Assembly (NCBI RefSeq): GCF_013408335.1
Contig: NZ_JACBZR010000001.1
Span: 806,001-870,000 of the forward strand
Length of the DNA: 64,000 nucleotides
Source: Nocardioides panzhihuensis
GTDB taxonomy: Bacteria; Actinomycetota; Actinomycetes; Propionibacteriales; Nocardioidaceae
Direction of reading: 5' to 3'
Part shown: positions 27,099 through 30,383 of the stretch, piece after piece
Layout: each line of letters starts with the position of its first letter
Numbering within the stretch: the first letter of the stretch is position 1
The notes under the pieces: generated by a model
What the model saw: only the letters and a program-made list of their open reading frames with translations
Databases searched by the model: none
What the model was told of the DNA's origin: nothing
Made by a program: the position numbers and the translations under genes

Positions 27099-27257
27099 TG
27101 GGCCGCCGACCCGGCTTCGAGGGTCTTCTCGACCTGCCCCGGAGTCAAGGACGCCCTCCGGGCGCCGGCTCCGCCGGCCGCTTACGCGGTCCTTGACACC
27201 GGACCACGTCGAGAAAAAATTTGGCTGGCTATCGGGGCGGCGGCCCGGGTGTGGCGC
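27099..27257 (+). repeat. Inverted island repeat, left copy
   Basis: This ~159-bp sequence matches the reverse complement of 30229-30383. It contains outer arms GTCAAGGAC (27144-27152) and GTCCTTGAC (27189-27197) around a GCCGGC-rich inner hairpin, then AATTTGGCTGGCTATCGGGG and GGGTGTGGCGC. Both copies have the GGGTGTGGCGC end facing the DUF222 gene, as inverted terminal repeats would. Confidence 0.8.
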
Positions 27258-27452: not shown

Positions 27453-28607
27453 ATGAGCATCGACCACTGGGGCACCAACCCCGGAGACGTCATCGAGTCG
27501 GCTCTTGCTGCCATCGAAACCTCCCTGGAAGAGCTGCTCGCGATGGACCCGACCTACTGGCACACCAGCCAGAAGAAAGACTTCCTCGCCAAAATGGAGA
27601 AGCTCCAAGCCCAACAAGCGGCGTTGACGCTGCGGGTGCTGGCTGTCTCGGGTGATATCGCCGCAGAGACCGGTGACAAGGACGCCTCGGCCTGGATGCG
27701 TGCCGAGCTGCTGGTCGACAAAGGTGCCGCGAGGTCGCAGATCAAGCTCGCCAACGCGGTGACGAAGTACGAGTTGGTTGCCGCTGGCCTCGCTGAGGGT
27801 GTCGTCTCTGAGGCGAAGGCCCGAGTGATCACCAAGGCCCTCGACAAGGTCGAGGCCAACCCGGTCGCCACCGTCGAGGACTTGGTTCTGGCTGAGAAGC
27901 TGCTGGTCGAGTACGCGACCCAGTTCACCACCAAGGAACTGCGGGTCATCGGCAAACGGATCCTGCTCGAGGTCGACCCCGCCCGGTTCGAGGCAGCCGA
28001 AGCCAAAGCACTCCTCGCCGAAGAGGAACGCGCCCAGCAGAAGACCGCCCTGCGGGTCTGGGACAACCACGACGGCACCATCGGCTTCGACGGTGTCCTC
28101 CCTGTTTCGATCGGGATGAGGTTCAAGAAGCAGGTCGAGGCCTGGGCTCAGCCGCGTAAGCAGCAGCTCGTCGACAAAGGTGCCCCGTTGCCGCCGTGGG
28201 AGCGGTTGATGGGCCAGGGGTTCGCCCGGCTGATCGAGACCATCGACCCGAATGCGCTGCCCCGCCATGGTGGTGACGCGACCGTCGTCAACGTCGTGAT
28301 CTCGCTCGAGGAGCTCCGCAAGGAACTCGGCACCGCCACATTGGGCTACGACGAGATCAACGGCACCACCATCACCGCCGCCGAAGCCCGCCAGATGGCA
28401 TGCAACGCCACCATCATCCCCTGGGTCCTCGGCGGAAACAGCGAGATCCTCGACGCCGGCAGGGCCAGCAGATTCTTCCAGCCCATCCAACGCAAAGCCC
28501 TCCGACTCCAACAGAAGTGCTGCCAAGCCGAAGGCTGCGACATGCCACCGGAATGGTGCGACGCCCACAGAGAGGATGTCGGTGCGTCATCTCGTGTGGC
28601 GGCCTGA
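27453..28607 (+). pseudogene. DUF222/HNH (13E12-type) protein, 5' part, disrupted by IS110
   Basis: The frame encodes 372 residues of a DUF222 protein, then runs 12 codons into the insertion element and stops at 28607. The domain begins MSIDHWGTNPGDVIESALAAIET, and the end reads CQAEGCDMPPEWCDAH, the first half of a zinc-supported HNH nuclease. The second half is at 29920-30070. Joining 28570 to 29920 gives an uninterrupted 422-residue protein ending PHHHRLAHN...RFTRRP, so it was intact before insertion. Without the second half the HNH catalytic site is gone, so the nuclease should be inactive; the DUF222 part may still be expressed. These genes are usually present in many copies per genome. 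Confidence 0.92.
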
Positions 28608-28821
28608 CTCTGAGCGCTCATTGACGGCGCGAGCATGAAGCGCGCCTGTCCTGAAATGGATTGGTCGACCGTTGCACGAGGTGGCGTGCTGTCAGACCAC
28701 CGGCACGCTGGGCGTGACTTGATAGGAGCCTGCTAGGAACACGCCCATCTCTGTGTTGTCCGCCCTGGCGATGCCGGTGGTCTGTCCATCCACCCGACGA
28801 GGAGAGGACGGCATCACCAGC
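28571..28821 (+). ncRNA. Candidate bridge RNA region of the IS110 element
   Basis: The non-coding left end contains several potential stems, for example GGGCGTG at 28710-28716 with CACGCCC at 28740-28746. Short stretches resemble the insertion target: CGAGGTGG (28677-28684) matches the complement of the right flank CCACCTCG, and ACGCCCA (28741-28747) matches the left flank. In bridge-RNA elements such guides lie in internal loops. The order and pairing cannot be settled by eye, so only the region, not the folded RNA, is claimed. Confidence 0.5.
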
Positions 28822-29907
28822 ATGACGAATCGAAGCGAGGATCGCGAGGTGATCGGCGGCGTCGATACCCACGGCGCCACTCACCACTGCGCTGCGCTCG
28901 ACGCGCGAACAGGGAAGTTGCTGGGCGACAGCGAGTTCCCAGCAACTGCGAAGGGCTACGCCCAAGCCCTCAAGTGGCTGCAGCGGTACGGGAGGGTCGA
29001 AGCGGTCGGGGTCGAGGGAACCGGGTCTTACGGAGCAGGGCTCACCCGGTACCTCACCAGCCGCGACGTGGTCGTCATCGAGGTCGTCCGCGCGAACCGT
29101 CAGGCCCGGTATCTGCAGGGCAAGTCGGACCCTCTAGACGCGATCAATGCTGCGCGCGCCGTGCTGGCCGGCATGGCCACCACGGTCCCCAAGACACGCA
29201 ACGGGAACGTAGAAGCGATCCGAATGATCCAAACCACCAGGCGCAGCGCCTCGAAAGCACGCAAGGCCGCGATCAACCAGATGCACGGCCTGATCTACTC
29301 CGCTCCCGAACCACTGCGCGAACAGCTGCGAGGGCTCAACCGCGCCGCACTGGTTGCCCGCTGCTTACGCCTGCGACCAACGACCTCAACCCAGTCCGGG
29401 GAGCTGACAGTCATCGCCAAGACGATGCTGCGCCGACTCGCACGGCGCGTTCAAGCTCTCGATGAAGAGATCGAGGAAGCCAACCAGCAACTCACAGAAC
29501 TCGTTCAACACGCAGCGCCCGCCCTGCTCCAGGTCTTCGGCGCCGGACCTGAAGCAGCTGCGCAACTCCTGACCACCGCAGGAGAGAACCGCGACAGGAT
29601 CTCAACCGAGGCCTCACTCGCACGCCTCTGCGGTGTCGCCCCGATCCCAGCCAGCAGCGGCAACACAACCCGGCATCGACTCCACCGCGGCGGCGACCGG
29701 AGAGCCAACTCCGCGATTCACATGATCATCATCAACCGGCTCCGATGGCACGAACCCACCAAGGCCTACGTCACCCGCCGCACCGCCGAAGGAAAGACCA
29801 AAAGCGAGATCATCCGATGCCTCAAGCGCGCGGCCGTCCGCGAGCTCTACCGCGCTCTCCTGACAGACCTCAACAAACCAGCCGCAGAGCACGAACCCGC
29901 CGCTTGA
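28822..29907 (+). CDS. IS110-family transposase (bridge-RNA-guided recombinase type)
   Basis: The 361-residue protein has the DEDD RuvC-like domain, with D15 (GGVDTHGAT), E65 (GVEGTGSYG), D103 and D106 (KSDPLDAINAA), then a coiled-coil region (about 200-225). The C-terminal Transposase_20 domain carries the serine motif PASSGNTTRHRLHRGG (S279 the likely nucleophile). All residues expected for activity are present. ATG 28822 was chosen over the ATG at 28753, which lies in the non-coding end and adds 23 atypical residues. The gene is intact, so the element may still move. Confidence 0.93.
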   Translation: MTNRSEDREVIGGVDTHGATHHCAALDARTGKLLGDSEFPATAKGYAQALKWLQRYGRVEAVGVEGTGSYGAGLTRYLTSRDVVVIEVVRANRQARYLQGKSDPLDAINAARAVLAGMATTVPKTRNGNVEAIRMIQTTRRSASKARKAAINQMHGLIYSAPEPLREQLRGLNRAALVARCLRLRPTTSTQSGELTVIAKTMLRRLARRVQALDEEIEEANQQLTELVQHAAPALLQVFGAGPEAAAQLLTTAGENRDRISTEASLARLCGVAPIPASSGNTTRHRLHRGGDRRANSAIHMIIINRLRWHEPTKAYVTRRTAEGKTKSEIIRCLKRAAVRELYRALLTDLNKPAAEHEPAA

Positions 29908-29919
29908 CATGCATAGGAG

Positions 29920-30070
29920 CATCCACCTCGACCCATGGGCCGCAGGCGGAAGAACGGATCTGAAGGACGGGGTCTTGCTCTGCCCGCACCATCACCGACT
30001 GGCGCACAACCCTGCCTATGTTCATGAGCGGCTACCCGACGGCACGGTCCGGTTCACTCGCCGCCCCTAA
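29920..30070 (+). pseudogene. 3' remnant of the disrupted DUF222/HNH gene
   Basis: This fragment continues the HNH domain: after removal of the IS110 element, codons from the split AGC through the TAA at 30068-30070 encode SIHLDPWAAGG, then RTDLKDGVLLCPHHHRLAHN and a short tail. It contains the second zinc/catalytic half (C..HHH..N) of the nuclease. It has no start codon of its own in this frame. Confidence 0.9.
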
Positions 30071-30228: not shown

Positions 30229-30383
30229 GCGCCACACCCCGCCGCCGACCCGATAGCCAGCCAAATTTCTCGCCGGATCACGGTGTCAAGGACCGCGATA
30301 GCGGCCGGCGAAGCCGGCGGCCGAAGGCCGTCCTTGACTCCGGGGGCCGGCGTGAACACCATCCATAACGGGTCGGCGGCCAC
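30229..30383 (-). repeat. Inverted island repeat, right copy
   Basis: The reverse complement of the left copy at 27099-27257: GGGTGTGGCGC faces the HNH gene, followed by the AATTTGGCTGGCTATCGGG block, the GTCAAGGAC/GTCCTTGAC arms (30285-30293 and 30330-30338) and GGCCGCCGACCC at the outer end. Between 30115 and 30448 I see no gene. Confidence 0.8.

What the first reader, a model, noticed from the sequence alone, without database searches (positions are those of the whole stretch)
28561..29930. IS110 element split the HNH active site with base-exact junctions and an AG core
Seen: joining 28570 to 29920 restores a 422-residue DUF222/HNH frame through the catalytic motif to a TAA at 30068-30070. 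The two bases AG occur on both sides of the element and once in the restored target GCCCAC-AG-CATCC. Known: IS110-family elements recombine at a two-base core, leave no longer duplication and use a bridge RNA. Inferred: the element is young and probably active, since the transposase has all DEDD and Ser residues and the host gene has no further damage.
Basis: partly seen in the sequence, partly recalled or inferred. Interest (0 to 1): 0.72.

Follow-up and report, generated by a model that had tools for sequence, protein, structure and literature searches.

The report
Jumping gene targeting nuclease active sites
A small jumping gene, probably steered by its own guide RNA, has landed in seven identical copies between the same two histidine codons of seven sister nuclease-like genes in one bacterial genome, so the case in this window is one hit of a repeated, targeted attack rather than a lone accident.

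Summary
The IS110 element is real, but its ends and core were misread. Seven copies identical over 1355 bp exist in this genome. All seven sit at one point, GAYGCCCAY|CAYCTN, between two adjacent His codons (CDAH|HLDPW or HLEPW) of different DUF222/HNH paralogues. In the window the element is 28569-29923; the empty gene is 420 codons, not 422. The uninterrupted paralogue reads GCCCACCACCTCGACC, which refutes the AG core. Elements are 100% identical, host gene parts 81.6-95.9%, so the insertions look recent and separate. Seven of eight subfamily-A genes are occupied, none of 14 other DUF222 loci. Relatives hit the same gene family elsewhere; others of the clade hit catalytic-core codons of IS3/IS481-type transposases. 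A bridge RNA is predicted; guide-target pairing beats permutation across relatives, but this element's own guides match only partly and do not explain why subfamily B is spared. ISEc21 is a published precedent for catalytic-codon targeting. New member of a known kind.

The parts
28569..29923 (+). IS110-family element, 1355 bp (AGAGAGGATG...ATAGGAGCATC)
   Evidence: 7 identical copies in own genome with distinct flanks; empty paralogue
27453..28568 (+). 5' part of the split DUF222/HNH gene, ending ...CDAH
   Evidence: Pfam DUF222 5.4e-15
29924..30070 (+). 3' part of the split gene, HLDPWAAGG...RRP stop
28567..28568 (+). inferred target core AY (positions 8-9), left side
   Evidence: position relative to crossover and IS621 cut site; inference
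29922..29923 (+). inferred donor core TC, right side
   Evidence: as above; inference
28577..28790 (+). predicted bridge RNA, two long hairpins
   Evidence: fold -110.9 kcal/mol, z -5.68, 0 of 200 shuffles as stable
28582..28596 (+). 5' arm of basal stem of target-binding loop (3' arm 28675-28689)
28613..28621 (+). predicted left target guide AGCGCTCAT (vs target GAYGCCCAY)
   Evidence: similar position in relatives, 13 elements, 0 of 5000 permutations as high; coordinates
28651..28658 (+). predicted right target guide CTGAAATG, before the conserved GATTGGTCGAC anchor (28659-28669)
   Evidence: 25 guide/target pairs, 0 of 10000 permutations as high; coordinates
28722..28729 (+). predicted left donor guide ATAGGAGC, same as right end 29913-29920
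   Evidence: changes together with the right end in relatives; coordinates
28746..28753 (+). predicted right donor guide CATCTCTG (TCTCTG pairs CAGAGA at the circle junction)
   Evidence: sequence reading; coordinates
28822..29907 (+). IS110 recombinase CDS, 361 aa, D15 E65 D103 D106 S279
29904..29909 (+). -35-like TTGACA; with GAGGAT of the left end at 17 bp in the predicted circle
27101..27244 (+). left arm of inverted repeat around the DUF222/HNH gene (with 54-bp palindrome 27144-27197)
30241..30381 (-). right arm of that inverted repeat (palindrome 30285-30338)

Best explanation
An IS110-group insertion sequence with a 5' non-coding bridge (seek) RNA recombines as a circle into one short DNA site that encodes two adjacent histidines of the HNH motif of a multicopy DUF222/HNH (13E12-type) gene family. 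Shown: one element, seven identical copies, one codon boundary in seven paralogues, no duplication or loss of host bases, host frames otherwise open, relatives at the same or a nearby place in the same gene family elsewhere. Inferred: the RNA guides (left guide 28613-28621, right guide 28651-28658) choose the site, the circle junction makes the promoter, strand exchange occurs after target position 9 (the Y of the first His codon). Using codons of a catalytic motif as address gives the element a conserved target in many family members, and each insertion separates the two His codons (that they are catalytic rests on the general knowledge of HNH motifs).
For: 7 of 7 full copies at GAYGCCCAY|CAYCTNGA in DUF222 genes; intact sister site; 7 of 8 subfamily-A loci occupied versus 0 of 14 others, hypergeometric 4.7e-5; host copies 84.8-94.2% (left part) and 81.6-95.9% (right part) identical, elements 100%; 3 of 3 Mycolicibacterium sp. 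P1-18 right ends followed by HTIPWP of the HNH motif; L094 at WCQAH|HAVTDW and L093 at LACGPD|NRM with Pfam DUF222 on the left; RNA fold z -5.68; guide/target permutation tests; donor guide changes with right end; TTGAC in 13 of 13 right ends examined.
Against: This element's own guides pair only partly with its sites (10.5-12 of 16 counting wobble as half; the empty site 10.0). Subfamily-B sites (7 of 8 scored) reach 9-11 yet carry no copy, and the best unrelated sites among 125,258 window positions score 11.5-12.5, so the guides as read do not explain the specificity alone. In the permutation tests several relatives pair poorly with their own site (right guide 2.5-3.5 of 7 in L048, L051, L217, L219, L233, L234, L093 and others; own target ranks first for only 4 of 13 left guides). 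The anchor for the right guide was chosen, and rows share guides or targets. My first guide assignment proved to be a stem and was dropped. Target and donor cores differ under every placement of the crossover. No RNA, circle or transposition was observed.
Confidence: 0.85

Rival explanations
1. One insertion followed by duplication or transposition of the whole DUF222::IS110 unit, so that the seven copies are passengers of the DUF222 family.
For: DUF222 units are multicopy, share a 5' hairpin and often have an inverted repeat on the other side, so they may move themselves. Upstream of the ATG the copies L005, L006 and L007 are nearly identical over about 320 nt.
Against: Host gene parts differ by 4-18% between copies while the elements differ at 0 of 1355 positions; one close paralogue is empty.
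Confidence: 0.06
2. The element entered one paralogue and was copied to others by gene conversion between homologous DUF222 genes.
For: Paralogues are similar enough for homologous recombination, conversion would keep the site identical, and the near-identical upstream stretches of L005, L006 and L007 suggest that exchange between copies does happen.
Against: Differences between host copies lie right up to the junction (last base C or T on the left, third base on the right), so each tract would have to end almost exactly at the element; relatives elsewhere use the same site.
Confidence: 0.07
3. Ordinary IS110 insertion with an AG core at 28570/29920.
For: The join keeps an open frame and AG occurs on both sides.
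Against: Uninterrupted paralogue lacks the six bases; base 28568 varies between copies while 28569 onward does not.
Confidence: 0.01

Closest known systems
ISEc21 (IS110 family), seekRNA paper PMC11187229 (passages seen)
   Same: IS110 group, upstream non-coding RNA, circle with promoter, target traced to codons for and around a catalytic residue (second D of DDE) of certain IS3-family transposases
   Different: Here the host gene is a DUF222/HNH endonuclease-like family, the codons are two adjacent His of the HNH motif, and 7 of 8 close paralogues in one genome are occupied
IS621 and bridge RNA (PMC11208160: abstract and outline, sections 4, 6, 7, 12, passages; PMC11208158: passages)
   Same: Order of target-binding then donor-binding loop, guides on both sides of internal loops, recombinase catalytic residues, junction promoter
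   Different: IS621 has matching CT cores (its REP target is recalled); here target core AY and donor core TC do not match, and no 5' stem-loop before the target loop is evident
REP13E12 / DUF222-HNH repeats as neighbours or targets of mobile elements (phage integration, PMC2323391, passages; REP13E12/HNH/DUF222 among repeats lying near insertion sequences, PMC10589994, passages)
   Same: The same gene family serves as an address or neighbour of mobile DNA
   Different: Neither set of passages names an IS110 element or an insertion between HNH codons

Membership tests
IS110 family, IS110 group | DEDD (RuvC-like) domain plus Transposase_20 domain | tested here: met
IS110 family, IS110 group | Catalytic residues D, E, D, D and Ser | tested here: met
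   E65, D103, D106 and S279 fall at the motif positions in the phmmer alignment to IS621 (the first segment is weak, 6.5 bits); D15 by inspection of GGVDTH only
IS110 family, IS110 group | Long left non-coding end with structured RNA, short right end (IS1111 has the reverse) | tested here: met
   253 bp before the CDS, 16 bp after (and ends above); fold z -5.68
IS110 family, IS110 group | No target duplication, sequence-specific site, fixed orientation | tested here: met
   7 of 7 copies, same orientation relative to the gene
IS110 family, IS110 group | Matching two-base core in target and donor | tested here: not met
   No dinucleotide is shared by the empty paralogue and both element ends in register; only C9 is shared, and only where Y is C. 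IS621 tolerates some core variation, so I keep membership on the protein and the architecture
IS110 family, IS110 group | Guides complementary to target and donor | tested here: inconclusive
   Above permutation across relatives (donor) but partial for this element and not discriminating
IS110 family, IS110 group | Circular intermediate, RNA expression, transposition | not testable with these tools
   -
DUF222/HNH (13E12-type) host gene | DUF222 domain followed by HNH motif | tested here: met
   Pfam DUF222. The HNH residues were read by eye: Pfam HNH is not reached at 0.001 in the intact paralogue or in the right part of L094 (no family), but is in L093 (2.7e-6)

The most novel reading that the evidence does not exclude
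A clade of IS110 elements makes a living on the catalytic codons of other selfish genes: HNH motifs of hairpin-flanked DUF222 units and DDE motifs of IS3/IS481-type transposases. Catalytic residues with NAY codons (His, Asp, Asn) supply the AY core, and guide bases such as U at third codon positions accept synonymous C/T changes, so the address stays legible across a whole gene family; each hit disarms a competing mobile gene.
Probability: 0.4. Interest if true: 0.65.

Novelty: new member of a known kind. Interest (0 to 1): 0.5.

Why it matters
It gives a natural experiment for RNA-guided insertion: one element, 22 candidate paralogues in one genome, seven hits, one close sister still empty and 14 spared relatives, so specificity rules can be tested directly. 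It adds an HNH endonuclease-like family to the published case of IS110 elements aimed at catalytic codons, and it offers a reason why catalytic motifs make good addresses. It also shows that IS110 ends cannot be read safely from one copy.

Tried and rejected
Guide assignment: I first read CGAGGTG (28678 region) as right guide and GCGTCAT (5' arm) as left guide; the fold and the positions in relatives showed that these lie in the two arms of the basal stem, so they were dropped. The broad search test (25 elements, cognate 5.98 versus 5.38, p 0.0004 in 5000 permutations) rested on mixed positions, including that stem, and is superseded. Guides do not separate subfamilies A and B: negative. Core: placements CA/AG, YC/CA and AY/TC were compared; AY/TC is preferred only by analogy with the IS621 cut site. 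Plasmid records: 1080 with a match, all below 60% identity, not followed. Closest proteins (95%, 78%, 74% identical) are on contigs of 1414, 1417 and 1355 bases, perhaps collapsed repeats; their sites could not be read. Literature: searches listed no paper that ties IS110 to DUF222/13E12; the library holds only open-licence papers.

Full report
Observation. The window copy at 28.57-29.92 kb encodes an IS110-type recombinase (Pfam PF01548 and PF02371) inside a DUF222 gene (PF02720). Which is right was settled by other copies.

Copies. A DNA search of the window's own assembly (6.31 Mb, 3 contigs) found 7 full copies at 100% identity over 1355 bp and one 223-bp remnant at 67% on contig 2. All 7 full copies lie in the same orientation at the same point of a DUF222/HNH gene, GAYGCCCAY|CAYCTNGA. 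On the left the base next to the element is C in four copies and T in three; on the right the third base is the first to vary. Joined flanks give a stop-to-stop frame of 425 codons in 7 of 7. The window copy is L007.

The gene family. The genome holds 23 matches to the DUF222 part, which I count as 22 loci (two rows are neighbouring halves of one locus with a stop): 8 in subfamily A (88-100% identical to the window protein), 8 in B (58-60%), 6 in C (41-43%). Seven of eight A loci carry the element; the eighth is empty and reads TGCGATGCCCACCACCTCGACCCC. None of the 14 B and C loci carries it, since all 7 full copies are in A (7 of 8 versus 0 of 14, 4.7e-5; versus 0 of 8 B alone 7.0e-4). All 8 B loci have the same His-His codons (GARGCMCAYCAY); four of six C loci were read and have EAHHW.

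Age and mode. Host parts of the 8 A copies are 84.8-94.2% (left, 1116 nt) and 81.6-95.9% (right, 147 nt) identical pairwise, the elements 100%. That argues for separate recent insertions and against duplication of an occupied unit; gene conversion would need tracts ending almost exactly at the element every time. Against this reading, copies L005, L006 and L007 are nearly identical over about 320 nt upstream of the ATG, so some exchange between copies has happened.

Relatives. Of 294 genomes of the same family 138 have a recombinase match; the best over most of the length is 54%, short pieces reach 57%. Of 394 of the class 149 match; best over most of the length 55-56%, pieces to 60%. Of 297 of genus g31 (unnamed in the tool) 3 match at E<=1e-110, at 65%, 63% and 53%. 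Named relatives: Mycolicibacterium sp. P1-18, three contig-end fragments, 79-81% over 53 residues, all three followed by the HNH motif HTIPWPCGPT (one, L065, lacks one C at the junction). L094 (63%) sits at WCQAH|HAVTDW, the same codon boundary, and L093 (65%) further on at LACGPD|NRM; their left parts are DUF222 by Pfam. The 53% one (L095) is not at such a site by the frames printed.

Wider clade. I examined 74 loci (72 plus L063 and L066 added by hand); 47 rows, 43 distinct places, had a recognisable right end. By the frame that follows, 4 are HNH genes (L007, L094, L093, L063), 9 read N-A/S-x-x-E as in IS3-type integrase cores, 2 read E-R-F as in IS481, 4 are REP-like GGTCTCGATAC or GATCTCGATAC sites in one genome, and the rest I did not assign. 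Pfam found rve in 6 of 6 tested left parts of the IS3/IS481-type sites and rve_2/rve_3 in 8 of 9 tested right parts (the L050 right part gave none; L046 and L066 were not tested). So 15 of 43 places, the query itself included, are in motif codons of nuclease or transposase genes; the sample is of near relatives and is not unbiased. That the IS3 and IS481 motifs hold the DDE glutamate is recalled knowledge.

RNA. The left end folds into two long hairpins (z -3.84 for the whole left end; -5.68 for 28577-28790). In 13 elements with known left junction, target bases before the junction were matched to the first 75 nt of the left end: the best match starts 35-45 nt in for 11 of 13 (29 and 67 in the others), is 9 of 9 identical in L069, L216 and L227, and 9 of 9 with two wobbles in L094; the mean score exceeded all 5000 permutations, though the own target ranks first in only 4 of 13. 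In 25 distinct guide/target pairs (72 loci given; 43 dropped for lack of a right end or anchor, 4 duplicates) the bases before a conserved GA...GTCGGC-like anchor pair with the right target: 4.54 versus 2.76 (sd 0.26) of 7, 0 of 10000 permutations as high. The anchor was picked, and rows are not independent, since several share a guide or a target; pairing is poor in some (2.5-3.5 of 7 in L048, L051, L217, L233 and others). The donor guide ATAGGAGC changes with the right end (ATAGGACC, ATAGGGGC, ATAGGAAC in relatives), within a search pattern that already fixed TAGG. TTGAC occurs in 13 of 13 right ends, with GAG[GAC]AT of the left end 17 or 18 bp on in 7 of 13 predicted circle junctions, the window element included.

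Limits. For this element the left guide AGCGCTCAT against GAYGCCCAY has one to two mismatches plus wobbles, and the right guide scores 4.5 of 7 in the window copy. B sites (7 of 8 scored) reach 9-11, A sites 10-12, and chance sites in the window up to 12.5. So the RNA-guided step is supported by homology and by the clade-wide tests, not by this element alone, and the sparing of B is unexplained.

Known background. IS110/IS1111 use bridge or seek RNAs (PMC11208160, PMC11208158, PMC11187229; parts seen are named under Closest known systems). ISEc21 was traced to codons around the second D of DDE in IS3-family transposases (PMC11187229, passages), so catalytic-codon targeting is in print; DUF222/HNH as a target of IS110 was not found in the searches listed under Tried and rejected.

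The DUF222 units. In the window the gene lies between arms of an inverted repeat (27101-27244 and 30241-30381), each with a palindrome. All 8 A loci have the first palindrome arm 307-312 bp before the ATG, and 5 of 8 A and 3 of 8 B loci show a detectable inverted partner downstream. The strict palindrome occurs 17 times in the genome, 11 of them next to DUF222 loci. The units may be mobile themselves; this was not pursued.

Noticed in passing
window 27101-27244 and 30241-30381; 27144-27197 and 30285-30338: Inverted repeat with internal GTCAAGGAC...GTCCTTGAC palindromes around the DUF222/HNH gene; 17 such palindromes in the genome, 11 at DUF222 loci and six elsewhere. Suggests DUF222 units with cognate hairpins, perhaps mobile.
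   Followed up: partly
L222, L224, L226, L046, L050, L058, L060, L092, L066: IS110 relatives inserted before N-A/S-x-x-E codons of IS3-type transposases.
   Followed up: partly
L034, L035: IS110 relatives before the ERF codons of IS481-type transposases; the left junction of L035 is out of frame with the right one, unexplained.
   Followed up: no
L216-L221: Six copies of a 51% relative at TCTCGATAC|GCC, a REP-like repeat.
   Followed up: no
L065 contig end: Right end GGAGGATC followed by ATACG, one base shorter than in L063 and L064.
   Followed up: no
G000 contig 2, 10117-10339 (L008): Remnant, 67% identical to the element over 223 bp.
   Followed up: no
L048: Left flank looks like the IS3-type D codon site but the right flank is unrelated, so the locus was probably rearranged.
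   Followed up: no
L005, L006, L007 upstream of the DUF222 ATG: Nearly identical over about 320 nt although the genes differ by 7-9%, a sign of recent exchange between copies.
   Followed up: no
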